A DNA stretch of 33,762 nt from positions 1 through 33,762 of the forward strand of contig JADGDY010000039.1 of assembly GCA_016744655.1 (NCBI GenBank). Reading direction: 5' to 3'. Shown here one piece after another: positions 3,601-33,762 of this stretch. Under the pieces are notes generated by a model. It searched no databases, was not told the origin of the DNA, and saw only the letters and a program-made list of their open reading frames with translations. The translations under genes and the position numbers were made by a program. Numbering within the stretch: the first letter of the stretch is position 1; each line of letters opens with the position of its first letter. Source of the stretch: Bacteroidales bacterium (GTDB lineage Bacteria; Bacteroidota; Bacteroidia; Bacteroidales; UBA12170).

Positions 3601-3711
3601 CTAGAACAACTTCAATGATATTCTCAGCAAATCTGCATAATTTTTAACTGAGCTAAACAAATAATCCTCTGGTTTTTCAACAAGCATATCCTGTACCGGT
3701 CTTGCCTTAGG
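3601..3711 (-). pseudogene. C-terminal remnant of a second REP-associated (Y1) transposase
   Basis: A 36-codon frame ending in a stop reads MLVEKPEDYLFSSVKNYADL near its middle, the signature tail of RAYT transposases. A stop codon lies just upstream and the catalytic part is missing. The N-terminal part should have lain toward 3.8 kb, where a REP-like palindrome (copy C) and an AACAAAGATAG string remain; the latter reads TATCTTTG on the minus strand, a plausible old promoter box. It is not a copy of the remnant at 1978-2079 but a diverged relative. Confidence 0.65.
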
Positions 3712-3808
3712 CTAGAGATGAATATAATTTAATTCTCATAAAAGAAGGCTTTACTGTAAATTACTTTAGTATGAGTAGTCAATGTTATGAAATAAGCTTT
3801 ATCTGGTT

Positions 3809-3888
3809 CGTGCGTTTTATATTTGTCGAACATATAACAAAGATAGAAATTTAACAAATTGATTGTCTGTCTTGTTAATAAACGCACG
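3809..3888. repeat. Inverted pair next to REP-like copy C
   Basis: CGTGCGTTT (3809-3817) is the exact reverse complement of AAACGCACG (3880-3888), enclosing about 62 bases. The left half also recurs in diverged form near 2094 beside copy A, which suggests a composite element rather than chance. Confidence 0.5.
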
Positions 3889-3935
3889 GAAAACATACTG
3901 AGGCTATACTCAGCAGAACTTTCCGCACTAGCGGG
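3883..3935. repeat. REP-like palindrome, copy C
   Basis: Best-preserved copy. The outer stem is CGGAAA with TTTCCG, and the inner stem is CTGAG with CTCAG around the loop gctata, followed by GCACTAGCGGG. It lies just after the last gene of the Rhs operon. Confidence 0.75.
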
Positions 3936-3944
3936 TTTGCATCA

Positions 3945-4754
3945 CTAATAATACATATACTCATAAACTACAAAAGGTTTTCGTGTAAGATAACCCAATT
4001 CGTTATACTCCCATTCTCCTGGTCTAGGTTTCGATAAAGCTGGTTCTTCTGTAGAGCCATCATTGTTATGTACTGTCCAAATGAGAGAATCATATTGATT
4101 AATTGATAAATCCTTCCTAAACAATAGCTGTTCATCAAAGCTCCAATTGCTATAAGCTTGCATTTTATCACTGTAGAAAAATTCATATTCAGAATTCAGA
4201 AGCTTTTCTGGATCATCATAATAATAGCTGAAAGCCACATTTCTATTTTCATCTAACTCATATAATTGTTGACTACTATATATTCCATCGTGATAAAAAC
4301 GGTATACTGAATTTTTATTGAGATATTCATATGTAACTCTTAAGACAGAATCCCCACTTGATTCTTCATCAACAATTACTTGAGTATAATTATTTATTAA
4401 CTGATTCTCATCATTATATTGTAGAATCCATTTATAGTATGTATTTTCAAACTTCCCTCTATCTCTAATCACTTCAGATAATCTATCATTCTCATCATAT
4501 ACCAACTCATATAGGTCACTAATAAAACCACCTTCATGTAATTGAACAGATATTTTAGTTAGCTGTTTTTTAGAATTGTACTCATAAGTGATATACTCTA
4601 CCACCCAAGCGTTTTCATATATATGCAGACTATCAATTTTATATACTGGCAAACACTTAGTGGGTTTTGCTATAACTGCCTCCTCTGTATTGTCTTTCTT
4701 GCATGATAATACAAAGAAGATAATCGCTGATAATGTGATAATTAGTTTTTTCAT
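3945..4754 (-). CDS. Lipoprotein, paralogue of the 6264-7070 lipoprotein
   Basis: A 269-residue lipoprotein with lipobox VLSC and Cys18-Lys-Lys-Asp, then about 230 residues of short tyrosine-rich beta motifs (YEYNSKKQLTKI, YELVYDENDRLSEVIRD, WILQYNDENQLINNYTQV) ending in YEYMYY. The repeats resemble loose YD/RHS-like strands and those of DUF4595-type proteins. It is last in the long minus-strand operon, 12 bases after the small membrane protein. It is clearly paralogous over its whole length to the lipoprotein at 6264-7070, and the similarity continues beyond both stop codons (taataatacatata). Each copy sits at the same place relative to an Rhs tip gene, so it belongs to the duplicated module. 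Its role is unknown; a part in surface anchoring or protection is possible. Confidence 0.85.
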   Translation of the reverse strand: MKKLIITLSAIIFFVLSCKKDNTEEAVIAKPTKCLPVYKIDSLHIYENAWVVEYITYEYNSKKQLTKISVQLHEGGFISDLYELVYDENDRLSEVIRDRGKFENTYYKWILQYNDENQLINNYTQVIVDEESSGDSVLRVTYEYLNKNSVYRFYHDGIYSSQQLYELDENRNVAFSYYYDDPEKLLNSEYEFFYSDKMQAYSNWSFDEQLLFRKDLSINQYDSLIWTVHNNDGSTEEPALSKPRPGEWEYNELGYLTRKPFVVYEYMYY

Positions 4755-4766
4755 TTGTTTTATAAT

Positions 4767-5150
4767 TTATCTAGGTACAATTTTCGTGTTGGGAATAGCA
4801 AAATAAAAAAACAAATAGCTTGATAGCAGTACATATCCAAGAACTAACACACTCCCAATAATTTTAATTGCTTTTTTTTCATTCTTAAACTTAACTAAAA
4901 TAGTTTCATATCTATCATTAAAAGAAAAGAGCAAATAATGAATAACAAGAATTGAAACAACAAAAATGATAAACATTTCTTTATTATAATCGAACACTTT
5001 TCCAGATAATTCAAGATATACTTTTATTGAAATAATATTAAAAAAGAATAACCAACTCATCGCCATTGTTGCTAAAAAATCAGGAATATCCTCATTAATC
5101 AATCTAAAAAACTGATATATTTTGATGTAAATATAATTATAAACAATCAT
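4767..5150 (-). CDS. Small membrane protein, candidate immunity protein for the orphan Rhs tip
   Basis: 127 residues with about three membrane segments (roughly residues 27-45, 58-76 and 95-117) and a basic C-terminal end. No family was recognised. It begins 11 bases after the orphan Rhs gene, so it is translationally close to it. In Rhs systems the gene directly downstream of a toxin tip usually encodes its cognate immunity protein, and the other Rhs gene here also has a small membrane-associated protein in that place. Immunity is inferred from position only; it could instead be an unrelated hypothetical protein. A multi-span protein would suit a toxin that acts at or reaches the inner membrane. 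Confidence 0.65.
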   Translation of the reverse strand: MIVYNYIYIKIYQFFRLINEDIPDFLATMAMSWLFFFNIISIKVYLELSGKVFDYNKEMFIIFVVSILVIHYLLFSFNDRYETILVKFKNEKKAIKIIGSVLVLGYVLLSSYLFFYFAIPNTKIVPR

Positions 5151-5161
5151 AAGAAAAAGGT

Positions 5162-6226
5162 TTAATATTCAAAAGCACCGTAGTTTATAGGGTTACACAT
5201 TTCTTCCATACCACGTTGAGTATTCCAATTAATTGTTTTTCCAGTAGGACTTTCCCAAAAAGCATTATTTGCTTCATTTAACAACTGTAATCCACCGACA
5301 ACAATAATTGCACTACTTATTTCAGGTATAAATAATGTACCAATTCCTAGACCAATATTTAATTTAAATTCATCTTTACTAATTGACCCATTTTCATAAT
5401 TGTAATAATCAACTAAAGCTCCTGCTGTAACTAAAGCAACATTTGCTTTCAAAAAAACATTAGTGTTTTTTACATATGGACTATAATTGAATATTTTAGA
5501 ATTATATACTTTATATTTTTTCGAAACAGTAGATTTACCAAGCCAATAACCTTTATCCTCAATATTCTGAAGAACTTTAGTCACGGCAAATGATGGTACA
5601 GTTATATTTATCTTTTCTTCTTCTGATAGACTCTCAGTACCCACCTTGTCATCCTTCCCAAATCCAGCTTGTAACTTACCAAATAAAGCTTCGTTTGCTG
5701 CATTTCTTTTTTCTATTTTCTCATCAGTAAATGCATGCTCTCGTAATTTAATGGGAGAATATTTATTTAGAGGGCTAATTTCATCATCATCTTGCCCTCC
5801 TTGAATAACAAACCCACTGGGGTCGGTATATTTTAATGGATTATTTAATACATAGGAATACCTATTGAAGTTTTGAGAGTATTCGGGCATTTGTAATACC
5901 GGGTCGGGGCTTAAAAAGCGGGCAATTACCGGATCGTAAACCCTACCATTCATATTAATAAGCTTAAACTCTTTTAAATGTTCATGCAGGGTATAACCTC
6001 TATCGAATATACAATCCTCAGGAACATTAGTATATGTCCAGTTAACCGGGTTACGTCTATTGCCCCAAGCATCAAAATTCATTTCTTCTATGGTATTTCC
6101 TGTTTTGTTCAAAATATAATTGATACTTCCAATGTGGTCTTTTAAAATATAGTTTAGGATATCGTTCCCATTACTATCTTTCACAACAATAGCAAATAAT
6201 CCGCTTGAGAATACCAATGAGCACAA
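5162..6226 (-). CDS. Orphan Rhs core fragment with alternative C-terminal tip
   Basis: 354 residues without a signal peptide. Residues 8 to about 144 reproduce the end of the Rhs core of the 2058-residue protein with only about six substitutions: DHIGSINYILN, NFDAWGNRRNP, RGYTLHEH, NMNGRVYDPV, RFLSPDP and the terminal YTDPSGF. After VIQGG the sequence diverges into a 210-residue tip that shares only an EALFGK linker with the main protein and then has its own sequence (a hydrophobic segment near 294-313 and a C-terminal CNPINYGAFEY). The first seven residues are not homologous to the main gene, so the frame was created by a break at the start of the shared block. This is the layout of an orphan rhs-CT module: a silent tip that can replace the expressed one by recombination. 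Whether this short protein is made or exported is unknown. Confidence 0.88.
   Translation of the reverse strand: MCSLVFSSGLFAIVVKDSNGNDILNYILKDHIGSINYILNKTGNTIEEMNFDAWGNRRNPVNWTYTNVPEDCIFDRGYTLHEHLKEFKLINMNGRVYDPVIARFLSPDPVLQMPEYSQNFNRYSYVLNNPLKYTDPSGFVIQGGQDDDEISPLNKYSPIKLREHAFTDEKIEKRNAANEALFGKLQAGFGKDDKVGTESLSEEEKINITVPSFAVTKVLQNIEDKGYWLGKSTVSKKYKVYNSKIFNYSPYVKNTNVFLKANVALVTAGALVDYYNYENGSISKDEFKLNIGLGIGTLFIPEISSAIIVVGGLQLLNEANNAFWESPTGKTINWNTQRGMEEMCNPINYGAFEY
5780..6205 (-). repeat. 426-bp direct repeat, orphan copy
   Basis: Nearly identical to 8111-8536 in the main Rhs gene, same orientation. The left limit is where the two tips diverge and the right limit is where the orphan frame begins. 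It encodes the conserved end of the Rhs core. Confidence 0.85.
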
Positions 6227-6263
6227 AACTTACCACCTATTACTCATTTTGAAACCAACTAAA

Positions 6264-7070
6264 CTAATAATACATATATTCATAAGCTACACCATAGTCT
6301 TTTGTAAGATAACCCAAGTCATTATATGCACGTACTCCTGGCCGTGGTTTTATTAGTTTTGGGTCTTCTGTGGTTCCATTATAATTATGCACTGTCCAAA
6401 TAAGGGAATCATTCTGGTTAATTGATAAATCCTTTTTAAACAATAGCTTTTGTTCAAAAGACCAATTACTATAGGGCTGCATTTTATCACTGCAGAAAAA
6501 CTCATATTCAGAACTCAGATACTTCTCTGTTCCATTATAATAGTATGCCATAGCAACATTTTTATTCTCATCTAATTCAAATGTGGCTCGTGAACCATAT
6601 ATTTCATCATACAAAACTCTAGAAGCTGTGTTTTCATTGGGATATTCATAAGTAAACAACAAACTAGACTCACCACTTGGCTCCTCATCTACAATTACTT
6701 GCGTATGATAATTTATTAATTGATTCTTATCATTATAATGTAGAATCCATTTGCCGTAAGAGTTTTCCAATTTCCCTCTATTTCTAATCACTTCTGATAC
6801 CCTATCATTATCATCATATACAAGCTCATAGGTATCTATTGATGAATAACCATCAACTAAGTCGACTACTATATTTGACAGCTGTCTATTTGAACTATAC
6901 TCATAAGTGGTATATTCAACCACCCAGCCATAGTGATCACTCTTTCGTATACTATCTATTTTGTAGAGAGGTAAACACTTAGTAGGTTTAATGAGCTCCT
7001 CGCTTTTATCTTTCTTGCAGGATAAGGCTAAGAATATAATTGCTGATAGTGTTATTATTAGTTTTTTCAT
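6264..7070 (-). CDS. Lipoprotein, paralogue of the 3945-4754 lipoprotein
   Basis: 268 residues from the ATG at 7070-7068. An upstream in-frame start 14 codons earlier exists but would overlap the preceding gene and spoil the signal peptide, so the inner start is chosen. It has lipobox ALSC and Cys18-Lys-Lys-Asp, followed by tyrosine-rich strands (YEYSSNRQLSNI, YELVYDDNDRVSEVIRN, WILHYNDKNQLINYHTQV), ending YEYMYY. It aligns from end to end with the lipoprotein at 3945-4754. The position, after the small gene that follows the main Rhs gene, mirrors that of its paralogue in the orphan module. Function is unknown; it resembles DUF4595-like Bacteroidota lipoproteins. Confidence 0.85.
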   Translation of the reverse strand: MKKLIITLSAIIFLALSCKKDKSEELIKPTKCLPLYKIDSIRKSDHYGWVVEYTTYEYSSNRQLSNIVVDLVDGYSSIDTYELVYDDNDRVSEVIRNRGKLENSYGKWILHYNDKNQLINYHTQVIVDEEPSGESSLLFTYEYPNENTASRVLYDEIYGSRATFELDENKNVAMAYYYNGTEKYLSSEYEFFCSDKMQPYSNWSFEQKLLFKKDLSINQNDSLIWTVHNYNGTTEDPKLIKPRPGVRAYNDLGYLTKDYGVAYEYMYY

Positions 7071-7086
7071 TTGTTTTTTTGAATAC

Positions 7087-7467
7087 TTATTTATTTTTAT
7101 TAATATTTTCACCTAGTATAAAATAATAAGTTTTTTCATATCTTATTATGTGCAATGTGTCAGATCCTCTTTTTTTGATAAGTGAATCTCCAATACGAAC
7201 AAAGCTATCCAAAGACCTTGGGGAATACATATAATTTCTTGAATTAACAAAGTATTTTTTTTGTTTATTAATGATCAAAAAGGATGAACCTTTCCAATGT
7301 TTCTTCTTTACTAATACACCAGCAAGAGAATCATTTAAAACAACTTCTTTGTATTCATTATACATACTTACATTATTATCAAAATCTATTAAATAAAATA
7401 TAAATACTACTAGAAAACTAAAAATCATTACAATGATCGCAATTGAAGTGTTATTATACTTTTTCAT
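7087..7467 (-). CDS. Small membrane-anchored protein, candidate immunity protein of the main Rhs tip
   Basis: 126 residues: one N-terminal membrane segment (about 9-27), then about 95 soluble residues predicted to be extracytoplasmic, with beta-rich stretches (GVLVKKKHWKGSSFLIINK, YYFILGENINKNK). No family was recognised. Its start codon lies one base after the Rhs stop codon, so the two are tightly coupled. By the rule that an Rhs tip is followed by its immunity gene, this is the best candidate to neutralise the main tip. Its topology differs from the three-span protein after the orphan tip, as expected if each protects against a different toxin. Position is the only evidence for function. 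Confidence 0.68.
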   Translation of the reverse strand: MKKYNNTSIAIIVMIFSFLVVFIFYLIDFDNNVSMYNEYKEVVLNDSLAGVLVKKKHWKGSSFLIINKQKKYFVNSRNYMYSPRSLDSFVRIGDSLIKKRGSDTLHIIRYEKTYYFILGENINKNK

Positions 7468-7468
7468 C

Positions 7469-10400
7469 TTATTCCCAAACTTTTGTAGATTTCCAAGTTA
7501 TCTGACCAGACACTGGTGATATAGAAACTCCAACACCACCCGTAATACTTACGCCAATTAGAAGACCACCATTTCCATCCTTTGAAACAGAATAATTCTC
7601 TCCAACTGTTAATACTTCTCCAACAGAAAAATTTCCATTTATGGCTCCATCCTTAAACGAATCAATTGTTAAGTTATTGATATCACCAATATAATAATAT
7701 GCCGTTAAGCTTCCTTCCAAACCAGCACCTACCCATCCACCTCCTATTCCTGCTGATGAAAAATTGTAATATTCGTACTTATCAGGGCCTTCTACAATAT
7801 ATAAGCCTCCCCAAGGAGTTGCATTTGAAGCCATCCAAGATTCCGCACCCCCTGAAAATTCAATAGAATAAGCAACTTGCTCCCCTAAATAAGCAGGATT
7901 TATATAGATGAAATCATCTAAGCTAGGCATTTCTCCTTCTTCTGACTCATGTTTAATTTTACTATCACTAGCAAAACTAATTTCATTTTTCCCAAACAAA
8001 GCTTCTTTTGTAGCAGAATAACCTTCATTTGCAGAGGTTCTGAAATTCTTTCCTAAATCAGATAAATAAGTTAACCACCAAGGGAAATTGGCATCGGCTT
8101 TTGGTTCATATTCATCATCATCCCCACCACCTTGAATTACAAAACCACTGGGGTCGGTATATTTTAATGGGTTATTTAATACATAGGAATACCTATTGAA
8201 GTTTTGAGAATATTCAGGCATTTGTAATACCGGGTCGGGACTTAAGAAACGAGCGACTACTGGATCGTAAACCCTACCATTCATATTAATGAGCTTAAAC
8301 TCTTTTAAATGTTCGTGTAGGGTATATCCTCTATCGAACATATAATCCTCAGGAACATTATTATAAGTCCAGTTAACTGGATTGCGCCTATTGCCCCAAG
8401 CATCAAAATTCATTTCTTCTATGGTATTTCCTGTTTTGTTCAAAATATAATTAATACTGCCTATATGGTCTTTTAAAATATAGTTTAAGGTATCGTTCCC
8501 ATTACTATCTTTCACAAAAATAGCAAATAAACCGCTAGGCCCTGCCAAATAATGCAAATGCTTAATGCTTCCATCTTCTTGTTCTATTTGCTCATAAAGG
8601 GTATTGAAATAGCGCTTGCGAGTATATGTATTTGCAACCGTATCTTTTATAGTTTGAATGAGCCTTTGCTGATTTAAATCGTAAGACATGTTTAGCTTAA
8701 AAGTGCCCTCGGTAATTTGAGCTATTTTCTTGAAGCTGGTATAGTTTATCTTTTGATCGAAATCGCTAATGGTGCTAGGATTTCTATCAATAGTGGTAAG
8801 AGCATGAGGTGGAGCACCATCTTCACCATAACTAAGCACACCCACATCCGATTTTAAAACTATATTGCCTAAAGCATCAAACTCCGATCGCAACTGTAAG
8901 TTTCCATTTACATAAATAGAATCTAATCTATTAAAACCATCGTAATTAAATGTTTCTGTTATGTTTTTGTTTAAATCGGCTCTGCTGCTTAAATTTAATT
9001 CTGGACTCCACAGATACTGATAATTTTGAATATTACTATAAGAGCCTCCCTTTCCGGCACTTATTGAGGTTATTTGCTGATCAATAGGATCGTATTCATA
9101 TTTGCTTTGTATTTCATCGCCTAGCTTGAAATCCTCCACCTTTCCAAATGCATTAATGCCATTGGTTTGATACAGATTCTCGCCTTCTTCATCAATAATA
9201 TTTATTAAAAAACCATAACCATTATAGCTTCTGTCTATTATATAACCATCGGGATAAGTAGTCATGCGTAAACGATTAAATGGATCGTAAGTATAATTAA
9301 ACTCCAGAGGATCTTGATCCACTTCTTGGATCTCTTTTTTAAGCAAGCCATTGTCATTATAAAAATAATGTCGGTTTTCGGCACTTACACTTTGGTTATT
9401 TACCAAATGATTAATTTCTGAAACTTGACCTATACCATAGGGTTTGGTATCATAAATCCATGTAGTGGTTCCATCAATATTAGTTCTGGTTTCTATTCTT
9501 CCTAGCTTGTCGTAGGTAAAGTTAAACAACCTATCCATAGCATCAGTTTCAAATACTTTCTCACCAAACGCATTGTATTGAAAGGTTCTTCGGCCCATAT
9601 CAGGATCAATAATGGTATCAAGCCTATCAAATATATCGAATGCTTGATAAATGCGAGTGGCATCATTCCCATTTACGGTCATTGATTTAGCCAAGCCATT
9701 ACTGTAATAGGTGTAATCTATGGTAGCAGTATTATTATCAATAATATTGACCAACCAGTTGGCTTCGTTATATGTTTTAGTTGAGGATTGACCATCTGCT
9801 TTATTAACTGTGATTTCATTTACGTTGTAGGAGTAGCTATCAATACTACCATTAGGATGTGTTTTTAATTCTAATTCTCTAATTTTATTATAGTTAAAAA
9901 CATAATAATATGCAGCTTCATCTGCTTTATAAGGAAGGCTTTGTTTTCTCAACAAACCTCTTGTACCATAAGAATTCGAATATACCTTGTCAACAAATAC
10001 TAAGGTATCCAGACCTGGGGTGACTTTTCTTAGTTCATTACCAAATTTATCAAAATAGGTCATTTCAAAGGGCTGCCCTGAGGTTTGAGTCCATGAATAA
10101 TATAGAGCAGAATCAGGTGCTAAAGGATTGCTTTGATAATCTTGAACCCATTGTAAAGCATTCATACGTAGCATACCATTTGGAAGGGTTTCCTTTTTCA
10201 CATTACCTATTCTATCATATTCGTAAGTAGTGGTAAAACCATTTGGATCGGTAACAGATTTTAACCAACCTGTGCTTTCGTAATATTGAAAGTTTGAAGT
10301 TTGGTTTTTATTGTTTGTTTTTGAAATAGTATATCTACCATTAGGATCGAATATTTGACTTTCGATACGGGCATCAAGACCATTTGCTAAAGTTTTACTT

Positions 10401-13400
10401 GTAGCTATATTTCCAAAATCATCATAAACATAGCTTTCCGTATAGCTTAGAGGATTACCTGGTTCAAAAACTATACTTTCTACTAGAGGTTTATCTGGAT
10501 AATAGTTGATTAGTTTTTGTTTAACTATATCTGACTGTCCATTTTTATGATATATAGTTTTAATAGAATCGGCTAGGCCAATATTATATCTGTTTCCATT
10601 GTCAATATTAATATATCTTATTTTTTGTGTTTCAGAAATATCATAAGCTCCCCCATTACCATAAGATTTTTTAATAACAGTTGGATTTCCGTAGCTATCA
10701 ATACTCTGTATTTCGTCAACAATTGTTGACTTTGAAACTCCATGAACATCAAAGCTTTCACTGCTTGTGGTTTTTATATATGGATAATATGATAAATCTC
10801 CAGAATCTAAATAGTCAAAATCATATGATGATTTTTTCACAAATTTAGTTTGATCATCGTATTGACTCACAAAGCTATTTGTATGCTCCATATTATTATG
10901 ATCTCCAATACTATAATAATCTATAGTTTTAGTTTTATTGTTCATATCATACTTAGTAACCAATTCATAGCCTAAAAACCCTTTGCCTGAACGGTGAATC
11001 AAAGGCCCATCATAATCATATACAGTAGAATAAGAAATATTATTGAAGCCATTTTCTTTAACTTCGTATACTACTCGATTAGTTCCCTTATAATGCGTAA
11101 CGGGAAAAGAAAAACTATTACTTGCTAAGTTAGGGTTTTTAAGATTAAGAGGACTATAAAAAACCTCCTTCTCAACTCCATATTCATCAGTTATTTTTAC
11201 AACATTTTTATTTCTAAATTGATTTAATTCTCCAGAAACTGAGAGGTGACAATAAATACTCATGTCTTGCCCTAAACCAGGGCTATTATGTCCGGAGATT
11301 AACTGGTTAGGATTTTTTCCATTAATGTTTGCAAAAGCAAATTGGAAATCATCAGTAAGATAACTACCTCCGTCACTTCCTGCTACTTCTGCAATTAAAT
11401 TATTTTGAAGAGCTATTTCTCGCACTTCAATTCCTAATTCTTTATTATTTGGATTTATTAGAAAATCTCTTCTGGTATATTCAATGCCTGGTTTTACTTC
11501 TTCTTTAGAATCATCTGAATAATCATTTCTTTTAATTAACATGACATCTGCAAAACCATCATGATTCAGATCTGTTACAACAATATCTCTATGATTTACT
11601 ACATTTATTGATTGTATACTTATAGAGTCTGAAAATATACCATTTCCCGCAGAGTAATAAAAATCCCAATTATAATTACTCTTATTTTTAAAGATAACCA
11701 CATCAGTTTTTCCATCCCCATTAAAATCGCCTGCTCCAAATTTCGACTGATAATCACTATTACTAAAAACATTTTTCGTGTTAATAAAATTGATAACTGT
11801 ATTATCAGAGTTCAAACTAATAATTTTACTTTCTTTGTCACCAAAGTTTTGGCAAAGAATGTCTAATTTCCCATCGCCATCAAAATCCCCTGATAATGTT
11901 TTACTTGGAATAAGAAGCATCCCATTACAGGTAGTAATAAGATTTACTTCATCTTCTCCAACAGAACTTTCCCAAATTCTGACATTACCTTTACTTCCTT
12001 CTCTGCTAATACACATTACATCAATTATTCCGTCTCCTGTATAATCCCCAATAAAAAACTCAGGATAATCGTATGAGCTTATATTAACGTTAAAATATAC
12101 TTTTCCTGGTATTATCTGATATCCATTTGTATTATAAATCTGCCCAATAAGATTTCCTCCAAACTTGTATACCATGAATAATTCCTCTAAACCATCACCA
12201 TTAAAATCTCCAGCTGAAATTTTTAAGATCTCACGACCTGTAAATTCAATTAAAGATTGATTTTGCCTAGTTAAGTTTAAGTCATCTGCTCCTGTAGTCA
12301 AGTTTAAATAAGCATTAAACCTATTATTAGTGACACTATTACCAGCGATTGACCATGTAATAATATCATCAGTATTATCATTACCAAAATCAATTTTAAT
12401 AATTTGAACCAAATGCTCATAATTAACTTGATTGCCAATAAAAACACTATCGGAAATGGTTTTTGGATTATAGGCTTGATTTCCCCACTCAAACCTTGTT
12501 CTGTTAAATATCGGAGGCACCTCTTCTTTTGAAGGATTATCAGTTTCACCCAAATAAAAGGATTTTAATTGCCAATCTCCAAATAGTGGGTCTACTTCCA
12601 TACCAAAACAATACTTATAAATTAGTTTCTGTTCTGGTATATAATTTACTTCTATATAATGAAGGAATTTGTCAGTTGATAAAAAATATTTAGCATTATT
12701 TGCTCCAGCAGAAAAAAATGATGGCGGATAGAAATTATAAGTCCAATAATTAAATTCAAGTTCATAAACAGGCTCTATTCCTAAAGCTTCATTTCCTGAA
12801 TACCGAATATACTTAATATTAAAAGTTCCTTCATCTCGATCATATACATACTCATATTCAATATAATTACCATTTGGATCTGTAATTTTAGATAAGTACC
12901 ATGCTATTGGATAATCATTATTTTGCAAATAATGACGTGTAGAAGTATCAATACCATATTCAAAAATTCTACCATCTTTTTTTATCACTCTAAAACCATC
13001 ATCAAAACTACTGCCTACCCTTGTTATTTTCTCGAAGCTTTCTACCTCAGTATGATATCTACCTTCATTTTCATCAAAGATTAAATAATTACCATCCAAA
13101 CTTAACTGATCATTACCACTAAATGATATGGCTTTGATAGAGTCGTTATAATATTTTGATCTAGGCACCCTTGTTATTCTCGATATACCGTAGATAGAGA
13201 ATCCGTATCCTAACTCTCCCCATCCTGCTCCACTCGTATAATTCAAACCAATATCGGGTTTGGAATTATTAATGCCATCTGGCAAAACAAAACCTACCTT
13301 ATAGTTTGCCGCACCTGAAGACAAAACATTGAATGAACTTTGTAATCTTCCTACTTGACCATGATCTCCATCTCCAGGGCCTCCAGTTGTATTATCGTCA

Positions 13401-13645
13401 GGTGGAAATACTAAATAGGGATCTATTCTGGCAACAAGGGAAAAGCTTGAATCATATGCGGTAGCGGTATATTCAAATCCATCAAGCATAATAATTGAAT
13501 CTCTGGCTACAAATTCCCTCTCACCTGTTATTGAAGCATCTAAAACTATACAAGACTGATGTGGCTCAACATATTGAGCATAAACATTTAAGCTAAAGAA
13601 AACTGCAATTATCGGGAATGTTATATATTGGTAAATATTTTTCAT
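7469..13645 (-). CDS. Giant SpvB/VCBS/YD-repeat Rhs protein (polymorphic toxin carrier)
   Basis: 2058 residues with a signal peptide (cleavage near VYAQ, residue 24). Domains in order: an SpvB-like N-terminal domain near 110-200 (GAANYKVGFVLPDGINNSKP, GYGFSIYGISRITRVPRS); FG-GAP/VCBS calcium-loop repeats near 465-720 (AGDFNGDGLEELF, GDYTGDGIIDV, SGDFDGDGKLDIL, GAGDFNGDGKTDV, TDLNHDGFADV); a TcdB-like middle (DEYGVEKEVFYSPL); many YD repeats; and the Rhs core near 1700-1835, ending YTDPSGF. The 223-residue tip (1836-2058) carries glycine-rich beta stretches and ends KSTKVWE; no toxin family was recognised. SpvB-VCBS-YD architecture is that of Tc-toxin BC cocoons, which encapsulate and release a C-terminal effector. 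It is third in its operon, between a T9SS-sorted protein and the candidate immunity gene. Toxin function is inferred. Confidence 0.92.
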   Translation of the reverse strand: MKNIYQYITFPIIAVFFSLNVYAQYVEPHQSCIVLDASITGEREFVARDSIIMLDGFEYTATAYDSSFSLVARIDPYLVFPPDDNTTGGPGDGDHGQVGRLQSSFNVLSSGAANYKVGFVLPDGINNSKPDIGLNYTSGAGWGELGYGFSIYGISRITRVPRSKYYNDSIKAISFSGNDQLSLDGNYLIFDENEGRYHTEVESFEKITRVGSSFDDGFRVIKKDGRIFEYGIDTSTRHYLQNNDYPIAWYLSKITDPNGNYIEYEYVYDRDEGTFNIKYIRYSGNEALGIEPVYELEFNYWTYNFYPPSFFSAGANNAKYFLSTDKFLHYIEVNYIPEQKLIYKYCFGMEVDPLFGDWQLKSFYLGETDNPSKEEVPPIFNRTRFEWGNQAYNPKTISDSVFIGNQVNYEHLVQIIKIDFGNDNTDDIITWSIAGNSVTNNRFNAYLNLTTGADDLNLTRQNQSLIEFTGREILKISAGDFNGDGLEELFMVYKFGGNLIGQIYNTNGYQIIPGKVYFNVNISSYDYPEFFIGDYTGDGIIDVMCISREGSKGNVRIWESSVGEDEVNLITTCNGMLLIPSKTLSGDFDGDGKLDILCQNFGDKESKIISLNSDNTVINFINTKNVFSNSDYQSKFGAGDFNGDGKTDVVIFKNKSNYNWDFYYSAGNGIFSDSISIQSINVVNHRDIVVTDLNHDGFADVMLIKRNDYSDDSKEEVKPGIEYTRRDFLINPNNKELGIEVREIALQNNLIAEVAGSDGGSYLTDDFQFAFANINGKNPNQLISGHNSPGLGQDMSIYCHLSVSGELNQFRNKNVVKITDEYGVEKEVFYSPLNLKNPNLASNSFSFPVTHYKGTNRVVYEVKENGFNNISYSTVYDYDGPLIHRSGKGFLGYELVTKYDMNNKTKTIDYYSIGDHNNMEHTNSFVSQYDDQTKFVKKSSYDFDYLDSGDLSYYPYIKTTSSESFDVHGVSKSTIVDEIQSIDSYGNPTVIKKSYGNGGAYDISETQKIRYINIDNGNRYNIGLADSIKTIYHKNGQSDIVKQKLINYYPDKPLVESIVFEPGNPLSYTESYVYDDFGNIATSKTLANGLDARIESQIFDPNGRYTISKTNNKNQTSNFQYYESTGWLKSVTDPNGFTTTYEYDRIGNVKKETLPNGMLRMNALQWVQDYQSNPLAPDSALYYSWTQTSGQPFEMTYFDKFGNELRKVTPGLDTLVFVDKVYSNSYGTRGLLRKQSLPYKADEAAYYYVFNYNKIRELELKTHPNGSIDSYSYNVNEITVNKADGQSSTKTYNEANWLVNIIDNNTATIDYTYYSNGLAKSMTVNGNDATRIYQAFDIFDRLDTIIDPDMGRRTFQYNAFGEKVFETDAMDRLFNFTYDKLGRIETRTNIDGTTTWIYDTKPYGIGQVSEINHLVNNQSVSAENRHYFYNDNGLLKKEIQEVDQDPLEFNYTYDPFNRLRMTTYPDGYIIDRSYNGYGFLINIIDEEGENLYQTNGINAFGKVEDFKLGDEIQSKYEYDPIDQQITSISAGKGGSYSNIQNYQYLWSPELNLSSRADLNKNITETFNYDGFNRLDSIYVNGNLQLRSEFDALGNIVLKSDVGVLSYGEDGAPPHALTTIDRNPSTISDFDQKINYTSFKKIAQITEGTFKLNMSYDLNQQRLIQTIKDTVANTYTRKRYFNTLYEQIEQEDGSIKHLHYLAGPSGLFAIFVKDSNGNDTLNYILKDHIGSINYILNKTGNTIEEMNFDAWGNRRNPVNWTYNNVPEDYMFDRGYTLHEHLKEFKLINMNGRVYDPVVARFLSPDPVLQMPEYSQNFNRYSYVLNNPLKYTDPSGFVIQGGGDDDEYEPKADANFPWWLTYLSDLGKNFRTSANEGYSATKEALFGKNEISFASDSKIKHESEEGEMPSLDDFIYINPAYLGEQVAYSIEFSGGAESWMASNATPWGGLYIVEGPDKYEYYNFSSAGIGGGWVGAGLEGSLTAYYYIGDINNLTIDSFKDGAINGNFSVGEVLTVGENYSVSKDGNGGLLIGVSITGGVGVSISPVSGQITWKSTKVWE
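8111..8536 (-). repeat. 426-bp direct repeat, copy in the main Rhs gene
   Basis: Counterpart of 5780-6205. It covers the end of the Rhs core up to the divergence point after VIQGG. Homologous recombination between the two copies would place the orphan tip onto the full-length carrier. Confidence 0.85.
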
Positions 13646-13669: not shown

Positions 13670-14089
13670 TTATTTCTTGATAATTTTCCACGCTTTTCTT
13701 TCACTATTAATAAATAGAGTGAAGAAATAAACTCCAGTCGATAATTGCTCTAATTGTATTTCATCTCCACTATTAAGTGTACCTGATTTAACCAGAGATC
13801 CTTCTAATGTGAGAATTTGATATTCTAATGATTGTATAATATCGTATCCGTTTATTTCGAACTTCAAATAATTAGTCACAGGGTTTGGAAACACTTTAAT
13901 ATTTTTTTCGTGATCAGAAAACAATATCAATTCCTCTTTAGTTTTATTGGAATCATTACCATCAAGAATAATAACTTTACGTTCTATTCTCACTCCGTTT
14001 TCACTATACTTAAACTCCACAATTTCATTTTGAGAAATCGAAACAAAAGGAATGCAGAATAAGATGATGAGAAAATGTAGATTTTTCAT
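13670..14089 (-). CDS. Small T9SS type A sorting-domain protein
   Basis: 139 residues with a signal peptide (ending near VSISQ). Residues about 65-139 form a type A T9SS C-terminal sorting domain: KVFPNPVTNYLKFEI, QILTLEGSLVKSGTL, LSTGVYFFTLF and the basic end KAWKIIKK. Such a domain directs a protein through the type IX secretion system, with release or attachment at the cell surface. Only about 45 residues lie between signal and sorting domain, so this is almost a bare secretion tag. It sits 24 bases upstream of the giant Rhs gene, which has no sorting domain of its own; a role as an accessory in exporting or displaying the Rhs protein is possible but unproven. It is 22 bases downstream of the tail-fibre-like gene, so all are probably cotranscribed. 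Confidence 0.85.
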   Translation of the reverse strand: MKNLHFLIILFCIPFVSISQNEIVEFKYSENGVRIERKVIILDGNDSNKTKEELILFSDHEKNIKVFPNPVTNYLKFEINGYDIIQSLEYQILTLEGSLVKSGTLNSGDEIQLEQLSTGVYFFTLFINSERKAWKIIKK

Positions 14090-14111: not shown

Positions 14112-16574
14112 TTATTTATTTAAAGACTCTATTAATTCACCTTGTTTATTAATTTGTTTTTGTTGTTCAATTAATAACAAAGTCAATTCTTCAATTTTTT
14201 GAAGCAAAATTGAGTTCATTTCTCCAACATCTATCCCATTTGCCTTAACATCGGATTCAGTAGGAACACCAGGTAGATGTTTGTTAGTCTTAACATACTT
14301 TTCAAGTCGTTCTAAATCAGGCAAAACATAAGAATCACTAAACACATAATCAGGCCAAGACGTACTTAATTCGACCTTTATTTTCTTACAACCAATAGTT
14401 CCATTCACAGCTAGCTTGTATTCTAGTGGAGCGTTATCAATACCAATATTCACTCTACCATCCATATATGCAATAGTACCCATAGCATTAGGTACCCATA
14501 ATCCTGGAGTTGTAATTTCACTTATATCGACCCATTCAGCATTTCCATCATTATCAACAGATTTTAAGAGTTTATCAGGCCCTGCGTTTCCTGTCATTTG
14601 GAAGCCTGTAGTTCTTGTAGTCCCTTTTACATCTAACTCTGTATAAGGATTAGTATTCAAAATTCCAACATAATTATGTTCCCCATCTATTGTTAAAACT
14701 TCAACATCATAATCTCCTTTTTCTGATGATCTCCCAGATTTTATTGTACCCGCAGTATTAATAAGACTAAAGTCGCTGAGTACACCAGGTTCACCATACC
14801 TGATTGATCCATTTGGATTATTTAAACTAAGATATCCTTGAGTTACAATACTACCTGTAATATTTGCACTCCCATAGACTTCAAGACTATCTCTTATATT
14901 CACATCACCAGCCACATCCAATTGTACAGTTGGGTTTGATGTTCCTATTCCAATATTATCGGAATCATCAATGGTAAATATACTTTCTGTATTAATATTT
15001 GGATTACCAGTTCCTTTACTTGGATTATGTCTTGCTATCTGAAATTCACTAGTCGATGAATCCCCAAAAATAATTTTATTGATACCACCTACCATTTGAA
15101 TACCTCCCTCTGTTAATATAGTCCCATCAACATGAAGTTTTTCACCTGGTATATCTGTTCCGATACCAACATTACCATTTACTCTGTGAATATCACTTCC
15201 CGAAACAGTCCATACAGTTTTACCAGCACCAGTACTCCCGAAATCTAAATTTTCCTGTAGATAGTTCTGTAAAAGTGAAACTGGAGCCTTATTTATTGAT
15301 CTTCCATTAGAAAAGATAAAGAAATCCTGTGCTCTTAATGAGTCTTCCTCTTGCTGTTCAACTATTGCCGCAAGTGTTAGACTTGTTATGCCATTACTAT
15401 CTGAAACCACCTGCCCGCTAAGTTCATTGTGTTTAGTTATGTATCCTGCATTAGCATGGTTGCCCCATTTATAGGCTGCATTCCATTTGGTAGAGTTGCC
15501 ACCAGTTGCAGAAATAACGCCAACCACATGAAGTTTACTAGAGGGGCTTAGGGTACCTAGTCCCAAATCTCCTTTTGAAGTAAGAACCATTTCAATAAAT
15601 TCATTATTGAAGTCCTTACCATAGGCCCATGATAATTTATTGTTCTGATTTAAGCCATAAATCCAACTATTTGTATCAGTAGCAGAACTTTTAAATGCCA
15701 TAGCAGCCTCTCCTCCTGAACCAACATTCTCAAGCAGCAGACCGTCTAACCAACCTCCATGACCACCTCTTGTACTAGTTAATGTTAATTTGCTAGATGG
15801 ATTCTCGGTTCCTATCCCTATATAATCATTGCTAACAGCTATAGGGCTATCTTCTATTCCTGACTCGCTATTCCACTTTGGTATAAAACCAACTGTTCCT
15901 GATCCATTAATACCTCCATTTTGTGAAGTCAAATAACCTTCTTCCGCATGATCTCCCCAATTAAAAGCATCATTCCATTCTGTTGAGTTACCACCTGTTG
16001 CTGTTATCACTCCTTTAACTTGCAGCTTGGTGGTCGGAGTTAAAGTCCCTAATCCCAATTCACCATTAGCAGTCAAAACCATTTTAGTAATACTATTATT
16101 AAAACCGGTACCATAGGTCCATGATAATTTATCATTCTGATTCAAACCATAAATCCAGTAATTTGAATTGGTTGCTGATGTTTTAAATGAAATCGCTGAT
16201 TCACCGTTAGAACCTGTATTCTCAACAATAATCCCATCCTTCCATCCACCACTACCACCTCTTGTTCCAGAGATAGTAAATTTCCCAAAAGGACTAATTG
16301 TACCTATGCCTATTTTATTATCCATAGTATATATTGGACTATCCTCTAAAACAATACCTGAAAGGTCCCATTTAGGCACAAAACCTGCAGTACCCATACC
16401 ACTAACAACATCTTTGCTCTCACTTTTAATCCTATTGAATTCATCAGTAGCAAAACCACTTTCAGAAATAGAATTCGAACTTAATCTAGAATTTGTATCA
16501 TTTTGAATTATTTGAGCTGATAATGAAGAAAGAGTGAATAATAGGACGACACTAAATAATAGGTGATTTTTCAT
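14112..16574 (-). CDS. Tail-fibre-like repeat protein, first gene of the Rhs operon
   Basis: 820 residues with a signal peptide (cleavage near LSAQ, residue 21). The body has repeated units of the phage tail-fibre type: NIGIGTxxPxxKLxV occurs several times (IGIGTISPFGKFTI, LGLGTLTPTTKLQV, IGIGTENPSSKLTL, VGIGTDIPGEKLHV), alternating with ATGGNSTEWNDAFNWGDHA and GFVPKWD/GFIPKWN units. Two halves (about 65-215 and 220-375) are internal duplicates. The C-terminus has LEKYVKTNKHLPGVPTES, followed by a coiled coil of about 35 residues (EMNSILLQKIEELTLLL..) that likely trimerises. There is no T9SS sorting domain. Proteins of this type often precede Rhs/YD genes in Bacteroidota. It may form a surface fibre or adhesin that helps target cells or delivers the Rhs protein (inference). 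A promoter box and a 12-bp palindrome lie upstream. Confidence 0.85.
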   Translation of the reverse strand: MKNHLLFSVVLLFTLSSLSAQIIQNDTNSRLSSNSISESGFATDEFNRIKSESKDVVSGMGTAGFVPKWDLSGIVLEDSPIYTMDNKIGIGTISPFGKFTISGTRGGSGGWKDGIIVENTGSNGESAISFKTSATNSNYWIYGLNQNDKLSWTYGTGFNNSITKMVLTANGELGLGTLTPTTKLQVKGVITATGGNSTEWNDAFNWGDHAEEGYLTSQNGGINGSGTVGFIPKWNSESGIEDSPIAVSNDYIGIGTENPSSKLTLTSTRGGHGGWLDGLLLENVGSGGEAAMAFKSSATDTNSWIYGLNQNNKLSWAYGKDFNNEFIEMVLTSKGDLGLGTLSPSSKLHVVGVISATGGNSTKWNAAYKWGNHANAGYITKHNELSGQVVSDSNGITSLTLAAIVEQQEEDSLRAQDFFIFSNGRSINKAPVSLLQNYLQENLDFGSTGAGKTVWTVSGSDIHRVNGNVGIGTDIPGEKLHVDGTILTEGGIQMVGGINKIIFGDSSTSEFQIARHNPSKGTGNPNINTESIFTIDDSDNIGIGTSNPTVQLDVAGDVNIRDSLEVYGSANITGSIVTQGYLSLNNPNGSIRYGEPGVLSDFSLINTAGTIKSGRSSEKGDYDVEVLTIDGEHNYVGILNTNPYTELDVKGTTRTTGFQMTGNAGPDKLLKSVDNDGNAEWVDISEITTPGLWVPNAMGTIAYMDGRVNIGIDNAPLEYKLAVNGTIGCKKIKVELSTSWPDYVFSDSYVLPDLERLEKYVKTNKHLPGVPTESDVKANGIDVGEMNSILLQKIEELTLLLIEQQKQINKQGELIESLNK

Positions 16575-17173: not shown

Positions 17174-17225
17174 GCACGGAAAACATACTGAGGCACTGCT
17201 CAGCAGAATTTTTCGCACTAGTGGG
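17174..17225. repeat. REP-like palindrome, copy D
   Basis: Nearly the same as copy C at 3883: GCACGGAAAACATACTGAGG at the left, CTCAGCAGAA in the inner stem and TTTCGCACTAGTGGG at the right. The two are over 13 kb apart, flanking the Rhs operon on both sides. Confidence 0.72.
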
Positions 17226-17232
17226 TAAACCT

Positions 17233-20628: not shown

Positions 20629-22491
20629 TTATTTAGTTACTAAAGGAAAATCCATTGTTTCAGCACTTGAGAATTTATGAGACTCTAAGTTGTCATAAAT
20701 CATTCCATTTGTTCCGAATAATAAGCTCTTGCTATCGTAACCTAAAACCTTAAGGTAAGCAGTTAACATAGAAGATGTTTGTCCAGTCCAGCAATAAGAA
20801 ACTACTGCAGCATTTGGATTTAAGAATTGATATTCGTCACCTGCTAATGTTAGAGGCTTTACTCTACGTGCTCCAGTAATATTGCCATAATGTTCAACAT
20901 CTGCTACATCCCAGAAATTATTGATGAAATAATTAGTTGGTGTGGCCAATACATCTGCATTAGTTACTTTATTCATTCCACCTAGCAATACTTGAACCTG
21001 ATTTGCAAGGATAGCAGCACCATCAGTTAAATCTGTATCAATCAAAGGATCTCCATAATTAACATTCTCTACAATAGCACCCGGTGCAGCTGTCCAACTT
21101 TCACTTTCAGTACCAGCATTACCAATGTTATTTGCCCAAGAAGCAGAAGTAGCAGCATTCCAAGAGCTCATTCCCCATTTCATTAATTTAGCATCAGGAT
21201 ATCCACTTAAACGAAGTGCCATAACAGCATGTCCAGCAGTTTGTCCTGTGTAACAAGCTATAACAATAGTTTTACCATCAGCACCCTCAGCAGCAGTTAA
21301 TACATCTGCTAAAGTAGCATTTACAGCTGTTTCAATGTGACCTGTACTATAATCAGCTTCATTTCTGATATCAATGATATAATAGTCATTGGCAGCATCT
21401 GCATCTGTCATTTTTTCATTTACATCAGTAGAAGTTGTAATCCAACCTGAAGCTAAAACATCAGTAACATCCATTGAATTATCTATTAAATATTGTTTTA
21501 AAACAGGAAAACCATTAGTAACAGGATCAGATGTTTCTAATTCATATCCCATAATAGCAGCATCAGTATATTTGTGTGACTCTAGATTATCATAAATCAT
21601 TCCATTGGTTCCGAATAACAAACTCTTACTATCATACCCTAAAACTTTCAAATAAGCAGTAACCATAGAAGAAGTTTGTCCTGTCCAACAATAAGTAACA
21701 ACAGGCTGACTAGCATCTAAGTTTAAATATTCGCCATCAGCTAGTGTCAAAGGATTGATTCTATATGCACCTGCAACATGACCATAATGATTTACATCAT
21801 CAAGTGCCCAATAGTTATTTACAAAATAACTGCTTGGAGATGCTAACAGCTCAGAATTTGCTACCTTATTCATTCCACCAGATAATAAAGCAGAAACTCT
21901 CTCAGCTAAAATACCAGCTCCATCATCAGCACTAGTTGTAAGTGTAGGTACAGAAAATGTAGTGTTTGGTGTAATAGAAGCAGGAAGTGTCCAACTTGAA
22001 TTTCCTATAGCAGAAGAACCTGTATTATTTTGCCAAGAACCAGCAGTTGCAGCATTCCAAGAACTCATACCCCATTTTAACACCTTAGCATCAGCATATC
22101 CACTTAACCTCATTGCCATTACAGCATGTCCTGCAGTCTGACCTGTGTAACAAGCAACAATAATAGGTTTACCATTGGCATTTGCTGCCTCAGTAAGAAT
22201 ACCACCTAACGTTGCATTTACAGCACCAGGAATATGACCAGCAGCAAAATCATCTGCGTTTCTGATGTCAATAATATGATAAGTAGATAATTCTGGATAA
22301 ATTACATCCGCAGTTGTAATCCATGAACCTAGCATATCTGGCAAGTCCATTCCATTGTTTACCAAATATTCTTTTAAAACTTCAAAATTGTTTGTTGCCG
22401 GTACTGGAGCCGGCTCATCCTTTTTACATCCGCTTAATAAAATAATCGCGACCATTCCTATTAACAAGGATAACTTCATTAAATTTTTCAT
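20629..22491 (-). CDS. Exported lipoprotein with four rhodanese domains
   Basis: 620 residues with lipobox LLSGC (lipid on Cys22). The protein is an internal tandem duplication of a unit of about 299 residues, each with two rhodanese domains. Active-site loops keep their cysteine in all four: CYTGQTAGH at Cys114 and Cys413, and CWTGQTSS at Cys268 and Cys567. Other rhodanese marks are YHIIDIRNADDFAAGHIPGA and YYIIDIRNEADYSTGHIETA, each about 40 residues before the first cysteine of a unit. Rhodaneses move sulfane sulfur between thiosulfate, polysulfide or persulfides and thiol acceptors. Four intact sites in one envelope protein are unusual; usually one domain of a pair is inactive. It is divergent from a Crp/Fnr regulator with an FNR-type box between them, and precedes an anion-porin gene. 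A periplasmic or surface sulfur-relay or storage role is inferred. Confidence 0.93.
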   Translation of the reverse strand: MKNLMKLSLLIGMVAIILLSGCKKDEPAPVPATNNFEVLKEYLVNNGMDLPDMLGSWITTADVIYPELSTYHIIDIRNADDFAAGHIPGAVNATLGGILTEAANANGKPIIVACYTGQTAGHAVMAMRLSGYADAKVLKWGMSSWNAATAGSWQNNTGSSAIGNSSWTLPASITPNTTFSVPTLTTSADDGAGILAERVSALLSGGMNKVANSELLASPSSYFVNNYWALDDVNHYGHVAGAYRINPLTLADGEYLNLDASQPVVTYCWTGQTSSMVTAYLKVLGYDSKSLLFGTNGMIYDNLESHKYTDAAIMGYELETSDPVTNGFPVLKQYLIDNSMDVTDVLASGWITTSTDVNEKMTDADAANDYYIIDIRNEADYSTGHIETAVNATLADVLTAAEGADGKTIVIACYTGQTAGHAVMALRLSGYPDAKLMKWGMSSWNAATSASWANNIGNAGTESESWTAAPGAIVENVNYGDPLIDTDLTDGAAILANQVQVLLGGMNKVTNADVLATPTNYFINNFWDVADVEHYGNITGARRVKPLTLAGDEYQFLNPNAAVVSYCWTGQTSSMLTAYLKVLGYDSKSLLFGTNGMIYDNLESHKFSSAETMDFPLVTK

Positions 22492-23783: not shown

Positions 23784-23878
23784 TTCTTTGTATAGCTATA
23801 GCTACGGAAATTATTTCTTTTGAAAAGCAAGAGAAATAGAACCGATTTATATCAATCAATATGGTATTTAAATGGTAT
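23784..23878 (+). repeat. 95-bp interspersed repeat, copy 1
   Basis: Matches the reverse complement of 33668-33762 with six mismatches over 95 bases. It contains the palindrome AGCTATAGCT between GAAATAAATT and AATTATTTC arms, so it can fold as a hairpin. Confidence 0.8.
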
Positions 23879-33667: not shown

Positions 33668-33762
33668 ATACCATTTAAAAACCATATTGATTGATATAAA
33701 TCGTTTCTATTTCTCTTACTTTTCAAAAGAAATGATTTCCGTAGCTATGGCTATGCAAAGAA
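33668..33762 (-). repeat. 95-bp interspersed repeat, copy 2, reaching the window edge
   Basis: Reverse complement of 23784-23878 with six mismatches in 95 bases. The match runs to the last base of the window, so the element may be longer than seen. Confidence 0.8.

What the first reader, a model, noticed from the sequence alone, without database searches (positions are those of the whole stretch)
3945..13645. Duplicated Rhs tip - small membrane protein - lipoprotein cassette
Seen: the main Rhs gene is followed by a 126-residue membrane-anchored protein and a lipoprotein. An orphan Rhs core-plus-tip is followed by a 127-residue membrane protein and a full-length paralogue of the same lipoprotein. 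Known: Rhs systems keep silent toxin-immunity cassettes downstream of the expressed one. New here is that a third gene, the tyrosine-rich lipoprotein, is duplicated with each cassette. The tips and small proteins differ while the lipoproteins stay alike, so the lipoprotein may be a shared accessory, for example for surface display or delivery.
Basis: partly seen in the sequence, partly recalled or inferred. Interest (0 to 1): 0.78.

Follow-up and report, generated by a model that had tools for sequence, protein, structure and literature searches.

The report
Rhs toxin cassettes with paired lipoproteins
A bacterium's Rhs toxin locus keeps a spare toxin cassette behind the active one, and in both copies the toxin tip and its probable membrane-bound antidote are followed by a related lipoprotein, most likely a second protective protein, seen so far only at this one locus.

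Summary
A 2058-aa signal-peptide Rhs (7469-13645, minus) is followed by small membrane protein 1, lipoprotein 1, an orphan Rhs core plus a different tip, small protein 2 and lipoprotein 2, with gaps of 1 to 37 bp. The cores are 91% identical over 426 bp, the lipoproteins 75% (67% aa); the tips share at most a weakly similar linker, the small proteins nothing significant. This is the known main-plus-orphan Rhs arrangement. The small proteins are good immunity candidates: protein 2 is a sub-threshold Bfi1-family match, protein 1 has a homologue directly after an Rhs gene in another genome, in both cases without this lipoprotein. No full-length relative of the lipoprotein was found elsewhere; four other Rhs cassettes of the same genome and a partly syntenic locus in a congener lack it. 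So it is no general Rhs accessory. Both copies are under purifying selection and weakly resemble YD/DUF4595 lipoproteins, a kind that includes the published Bacteroides fragilis T6SS immunity protein Bti1. Best reading: a silent cassette whose cargo is tip, membrane immunity protein and a second, envelope-side protective lipoprotein. New variant of a known kind; modest interest.

The parts
7469..13645 (-). Main Rhs protein, 2058 aa: signal peptide (read by eye), SpvB-like N-terminus, FG-GAP repeats, TcdB_toxin_midN, RHS repeats, Rhs_assc_core to about aa 1834
7469..8125 (-). Tip 1 (218 aa), glycine-rich, no family match in Pfam, PHROGs or PDB sequences
   Evidence: three weak hits in the order lie in proteins without an Rhs core match
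8111..8536 (-). Core segment repeated in the orphan (426 bp, 91.3%; longest identical run 65 bp; copies a multiple of 3 apart)
7087..7467 (-). Small protein 1, 126 aa, one hydrophobic N-terminal helix; candidate immunity protein 1
   Evidence: homologue directly after an 1873-aa Rhs in L076
6264..7070 (-). Lipoprotein 1, 268 aa, lipobox ...LALSC followed by KKD, tyrosine-rich, YD-like motifs
5162..6226 (-). Orphan Rhs core fragment plus tip 2 (354 aa; DNA homology to the main core begins at 6205)
   Evidence: (TIGR03696 E 3.5e-16)
5162..5794 (-). Tip 2 (210 aa), no credible family match
4767..5150 (-). Small protein 2, 127 aa, membrane protein by hydropathy, sub-threshold NCBIfam NF053699 Bfi1 family immunity protein (45.7 bits vs cutoff 100)
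3945..4754 (-). Lipoprotein 2, 269 aa, lipobox ...FVLSC followed by KKD, paralogue of lipoprotein 1
13670..14089 (-). Small protein with T9SS type A sorting domain, 24 bp upstream of Rhs
14112..16574 (-). 820-aa protein with tail-fibre-like matches, first gene of the apparent operon
3884..3936 (-). REP-like hairpin element 8 bp after lipoprotein 2; 89% copy at 17174-17226 upstream of the operon
3601..3936 (-). REP plus remnant of a Y1-transposase (RAYT-like) gene, related to elements between cassettes in congener L058

Best explanation
This is a signal-peptide Rhs polymorphic-toxin locus with one displaced, normally silent cassette. Each cassette carries a toxin tip, a cognate inner-membrane immunity protein and a lipoprotein. 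The lipoprotein is most likely a second, envelope-side protective protein of the YD/DUF4595 general type (the kind to which Bacteroides Bti1 belongs) that travels with its cassette. Recombination between the 426-bp core copies would fuse tip 2 in frame to the main Rhs and remove tip 1, small protein 1 and lipoprotein 1 together, so the lipoprotein would be exchanged with the toxin. Shown: gene order, homology blocks, frame, selection on the lipoproteins, sub-threshold family link of small protein 2, occurrence of small-protein relatives beside Rhs genes elsewhere. Inferred: toxicity, immunity, silence of the orphan, location of the lipoprotein, its protective role, the recombination.
For: Core copies 91% over 426 bp, 2331 bp apart (a multiple of 3), with different tips behind, the layout shown experimentally for main and orphan Rhs in Salmonella (PMC3967940, passages). 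Gaps of 1, 16, 37, 11 and 12 bp join the six genes. Small protein 2 matches NF053699 Bfi1 immunity at E 5.6e-12, under the cutoff; of 11 places found in 296 genomes, 5 lie directly after an Rhs core or tip ORF, including L009 of this genome. Small protein 1 homologue (E 2e-14) directly after an 1873-aa Rhs. Lipoprotein copies under purifying selection, dN 0.22, dS 0.91 by NG86 (ratio 0.24; LWL85 0.30, YN00 0.09). YD-like motifs, 2 and 3 seen vs 0.012 and 0.015 expected in shuffles. A DUF4595 domain is reported in the B. fragilis T6SS immunity protein BF9343_1936 (Bti1) and its lipoprotein orthologue (PMC11854122, passages). Lipoprotein-like genes directly follow Rhs core ORFs in relatives: 10 of 46 by a lipobox rule, e.g. 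L054, an Ntox23 tip (E 1.4e-36) with five mutually similar lipoproteins around it (29-61% identity).
Against: No full-length relative of the lipoprotein elsewhere, so no co-occurrence test. Membership in DUF4595 is not met: no PF15283 match; hhalign 39% and 69%, the latter mostly signal peptide; pairwise shuffles z 0.1 to 3.3, while two unrelated lipoprotein controls gave z -0.6 to 2.0. The motif regex was written after seeing the sequences. The two lipoproteins are alike although the tips differ, which fits a tip-specific antidote poorly. Small proteins 1 and 2 each have relatives beside Rhs genes with no such lipoprotein. Small protein 1 does not match the 141-aa membrane protein of congener L058 (E 0.15). 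AlphaFold models of lipoprotein 2 and tip 1 are useless (mean pLDDT 37 and 34). Toxicity and immunity untested.
Confidence: 0.5

Rival explanations
1. Hitchhiker: the lipoprotein was the gene next to an ancestral Rhs and was copied with the cassette; it has its own unrelated envelope function, or served as a downstream homology arm.
For: Core and lipoprotein are the two conserved blocks either side of variable cargo. The FGE-sulfatase gene that flanks the locus here lies right behind an Rhs cassette in congener L058, showing that locus neighbours can end up behind a cassette. Lipoproteins are alike while tips are not.
Against: Only 75% DNA identity, which by general knowledge is poor for homologous exchange now; the repeat matches the ORF almost exactly (3944-4761 and 6263-7077); both copies kept intact with dN/dS about 0.24.
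Confidence: 0.25
2. Shared accessory: the lipoprotein binds the conserved Rhs shell or linker and helps surface display or delivery.
For: Lipoproteins alike with different tips; YD-like motifs recall Rhs repeats; lipobox followed by KKD is near, but not equal to, the surface export signal C-X-K-(D/E)2-X (PMC5080379, passages).
Against: Absent from the four other Rhs cassettes of this genome and from congener L058; no full-length relative in the 60, 395 and 393 genomes searched (overlapping sets, own genome apart); lipoproteins have diverged more than the core they would serve. One shared accessory would not need a copy per cassette.
Confidence: 0.2
3. The lipoprotein is the only immunity protein and the small membrane proteins do something else.
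For: Lipoprotein-like genes directly follow Rhs tips in several relatives.
Against: Small proteins sit directly behind the tips (gaps 1 and 11 bp), differ with the tips, and small protein 2 lies near a named immunity family.
Confidence: 0.05

Closest known systems
Rhs main/orphan toxin-immunity cassettes (Salmonella LT2, PMC3967940)
   Same: Full-length main Rhs, downstream core fragment plus other tip plus immunity gene candidate; there a 522-bp region of 95% identity is thought to recombine, here 426 bp of 91%
   Different: Signal peptide and T9SS-tagged neighbour; each cassette has a third gene, a lipoprotein
Bacteroides fragilis Bfe1/Bfi1 T6SS pair (BF638R_1988/1987, table in PMC7604300)
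   Same: Small protein 2 is a distant match to the Bfi1 family directly after a putative toxin
   Different: Below the family cutoff; partner is an Rhs tip; no T6SS looked for or shown here
Bte1/Bti1 pair (BF9343_1937/1936; PMC11854122, PMC7604300)
   Same: Lipoprotein with reported DUF4595 domain as immunity protein in Bacteroidota
   Different: DUF4595 match not met by our lipoproteins; resemblance is weak
Two immunity genes for one toxin: Bti2a,b for Bte2 (listed in a table of PMC7604300), Tdi5a/b for Tde5 (PMC13392607)
   Same: Two different genes next to one toxin; both shown protective for Tde5
   Different: No sequence relation tested; here one of the two partners is conserved between cassettes with different tips

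Membership tests
Rhs polymorphic toxin with orphan cassette | RHS repeats and Rhs_assc_core followed by variable C-terminal tip | tested here: met
   PF05593 E 1.8e-22, TIGR03696 55.8 (main) and 59.5 (orphan) bits vs 32.5 cutoff
Rhs polymorphic toxin with orphan cassette | Displaced core fragment homologous to the main gene, different tip, in frame | tested here: met
Rhs polymorphic toxin with orphan cassette | Tip toxic, neighbour protects | not testable with these tools
   needs expression tests
Bfi1 family immunity protein (NF053699) | Score above curated cutoff 100 | tested here: not met
   45.7 bits, E 5.6e-12, profile 1-123 of 131; 0 of 296 genomes searched exceed the cutoff
Bfi1 family immunity protein (NF053699) | Encoded directly next to a toxin | tested here: met
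   11 bp after orphan tip, a toxin by position only; of 11 places 5 directly after an Rhs core or tip ORF, 2 within about 400 bp of a core fragment (in L074 the fragment lies downstream), 4 not
DUF4595 (PF15283) | Match over gathering score 34.2 | tested here: not met
   no match up to E 1 for either lipoprotein; no hit in own genome
Lipoprotein | Signal peptide with lipobox cysteine | tested here: met
   MKKLIITLSAIIF..LSC in both, read from sequence and by a simple lipobox rule; no dedicated predictor available
T9SS-exported cargo | C-terminal sorting domain on the Rhs itself | tested here: not met
   no Por_Secre_tail on Rhs up to E 1; found on the upstream 139-aa protein

The most novel reading that the evidence does not exclude
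The lipoprotein is a core-bound rather than tip-bound partner: a cell-envelope guard that recognises the shared Rhs shell or linker and protects kin against any tip carried by this shell, so each cassette brings both a specific antidote and a refreshed copy of a general one.
Probability: 0.12. Interest if true: 0.65.

Novelty: new variant of a known kind. Interest (0 to 1): 0.35.

Why it matters
If the lipoprotein protects, it gives a two-layer immunity module (membrane protein plus lipoprotein) that moves as one unit in Bacteroidota Rhs loci, and links T6SS-type immunity families (Bfi1, perhaps Bti1-like) to signal-peptide Rhs toxins beside T9SS-tagged proteins. If it is a hitchhiker, it shows how non-immunity genes get trapped in toxin cassettes.

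Tried and rejected
Searches for lipoprotein relatives: 1 of 60 genomes (own only); 3 of 395 in the phylum (own plus two whose match covers only profile positions 1-61 of 270, in 469-aa lipoproteins); 10 of 393 in the order (own plus nine partial hits covering about 32 to 114 of 270 positions, five including the signal region and four internal; eight of these nine loci were read, G630 was not; one, L092, runs off its contig, so its full length is unknown); two genome-contig scans, 53 and 441 pattern stretches, none a relative; viral contigs, plasmids and phages none. The genome sets overlap, the pattern scans find close relatives only, and the own assembly is 86.8% complete.

AlphaFold of the lipoprotein from two rows and of tip 1 alone: mean pLDDT 37 and 34; no fold search was run on them. 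Three tip 1 hits in the order lie in large secreted-looking proteins without an Rhs core match and were dropped. Similarity of tip 1 to the L076 Rhs end (E 0.008, composition correction off) and to an L058 tip (E 0.11) is too weak to use. Two small protein 1 hits (L077, L078) have no Rhs core match beside them. One of the 11 Bfi1 places (G233) lies inside a 729-aa unrelated ORF. Terminator and promoter scans were near chance (80 vs 78.8; 9 vs 6.1). PADLOC gave nothing. The stretch 3855-3960 does not fold better than shuffles (z -0.9); its repetition, not its energy, marks it as an element.

Full report
What is there. On the minus strand the window holds an apparent operon running 16574 to 3945 with gaps of 1 to 37 bp: an 820-aa protein with tail-fibre-like matches, a 139-aa protein with a T9SS sorting domain, a 2058-aa Rhs, small protein 1, lipoprotein 1, an orphan Rhs core plus tip, small protein 2, lipoprotein 2. 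The next gene is 484 bp away. The main Rhs has a signal peptide (read from sequence), SpvB, FG-GAP, TcdB_toxin_midN, RHS repeats and an Rhs_assc_core. The orphan fragment also has the core (TIGR03696, 59.5 bits).

The duplication. Two blocks repeat: 426 bp of core at 91.3% and the whole lipoprotein gene at 74.9%. The core copies lie 2331 bp apart, in frame, with a longest identical run of 65 bp. As proteins the tips match only weakly near their starts (E 0.003) and the small proteins not significantly (best E 0.34). Core: 130 of 136 residues identical, dN 0.019, dS 0.47; lipoproteins: 179 of 270 alignment columns identical, dN 0.22, dS 0.91 by NG86 (LWL85 gives dS 0.65, YN00 2.2). Thus the lipoproteins are constrained but older or less homogenised than the cores; the core may be kept alike by gene conversion (inference).

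Small proteins. Small protein 2 matches the NCBIfam Bfi1 immunity family over nearly its full length but under the curated cutoff. That family was sought in 296 genomes of the phylum: 10 had a match, none above cutoff. Of the 11 places, 5 are directly behind an Rhs core or tip ORF: this cassette, L009, L072, L073, and L071, where the ORF in front starts with the end-of-core motif FIDPDGE (label recalled) behind two core ORFs. Two are within about 400 bp of a core fragment (L074, L075) and 4 are not beside Rhs (L068-L070, and G233, a hit inside an unrelated 729-aa ORF). L009, L071, L072 and L073 score E 6.7e-7 to 6e-5 on their own. Small protein 1 has a full-length homologue (E 2e-14) directly after an 1873-aa Rhs in L076; 4 of 296 genomes, own included, had a match, and the other two are not beside an Rhs core. 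None of the other-genome places has our lipoprotein next to it. This supports the small proteins as immunity proteins; it was not tested at the bench.

Lipoproteins. In the assembly (273 contigs, 86.8% complete) the family has these two members only. It is absent behind the other Rhs cassettes of the genome: two on contig C181 (L009) and two on C144 (L010). Searches in 60, 395 and 393 genomes (overlapping sets) and in five collection scans found no full-length relative, with the limits told under Tried and rejected. Both copies carry a lipobox followed by KKD; the Capnocytophaga surface-export signal is K-(D/E)2 or Q-A-(D/E)2 (PMC5080379, passages), so surface exposure is undecided. YD-like motifs occur 2 and 3 times against about 0.01 in shuffles (regex chosen after inspection). 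Links to DUF4595 lipoproteins are suggestive only: no Pfam match, hhalign 39% and 69%, shuffle z 0.1 to 3.3 against -0.6 to 2.0 for two unrelated lipoprotein controls and 1.5 to 1.9 for Rhs repeats. Pfam describes DUF4595 as having a porin-like fold; three DUF4595-like proteins of relatives also match RHS_repeat weakly and, as a profile, Rhs chains in the PDB, so the YD style is common to both.

Comparison with relatives. Contig C1 of congener G009 (L058) is partly syntenic: its FGE-sulfatase gene is 83% identical in DNA over 860 bp to the one behind lipoprotein 2 here, and RAYT-like elements at 74 to 86% match the remnant at 3601-3936. There, Rhs cores are followed by a 148-aa or a 141-aa membrane protein without our lipoprotein, and a 196-aa ORF right behind a core ORF (another frame) is followed by a 135-aa lipoprotein. 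In L054 an Ntox23 tip is surrounded by five lipoproteins of 231-241 aa, 29 to 61% identical to each other, resembling the polyimmunity loci described in PMC3482391 (passages). Over 46 core ORFs with a 3' end, in the window and 28 other fetched stretches (not all fetched loci; ORFs with an open 3' end dropped), the first gene downstream is lipoprotein-like in 10, the second in 6, and the order membrane protein then lipoprotein occurs in 3: the two here and L058, where the lipoprotein is the FGE gene (simple lipobox rule, some false calls likely).

Mechanism. The most economical account is the known main/orphan Rhs scheme (PMC3967940, passages) with three-gene cassettes. Immunity lipoproteins and double immunity both have precedents: Bti1 with DUF4595 (PMC11854122, passages), Bti2a,b (PMC7604300, table passage), Tdi5a/b (PMC13392607, abstract and passages). 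That the lipoproteins resemble each other while the tips do not is the main point against a tip-specific antidote; it would fit a guard against a shared step, a shared linker, or plain hitchhiking. I give dual protection about one half, hitchhiking a quarter, shared accessory a fifth.

Novelty. Orphan Rhs cassettes and lipoprotein immunity are known. I did not find in print an Rhs cassette that carries both a membrane immunity protein and a conserved lipoprotein; this rests on the listings in an open-access library only.

Noticed in passing
window 13670-14089: A small protein with T9SS type A sorting domain is encoded directly upstream of the signal-peptide Rhs, which lacks such a domain. The same order is seen in 5 of 8 full-length Rhs loci of relatives with over 400 bp upstream (L050, L051, L054, L055, L056; not L049, L052, L065; a ninth, L063, had only 146 bp). 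It may help export of the Rhs in trans.
   Followed up: partly
window 3884-3936, 17174-17226, 2083-2203: REP-like elements in the same orientation bracket the operon; 11 matches in the genome, four on contig C38. RAYT-like Y1 transposase sequences lie between Rhs cassettes in L058, so REP/RAYT elements may help shuffle cassettes.
   Followed up: partly
L054 2447-7082: Ntox23 Rhs tip with five similar lipoproteins of 231-241 aa, a probable lipoprotein polyimmunity array.
   Followed up: partly
L009 1214-8509 and L010 1-3359: Other Rhs loci of the same genome: a 2431-aa SpvB/TcdB-type Rhs without obvious signal peptide, orphan cassettes and a Bfi1-like protein.
   Followed up: partly
window 20629-22491: Internal repeat of about 710 bp at 70% within a rhodanese-domain protein gene.
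   Followed up: no
window 23784-23878 and 33668-33762: 95-bp inverted repeat at 94%, one copy at the very end of the contig.
   Followed up: no
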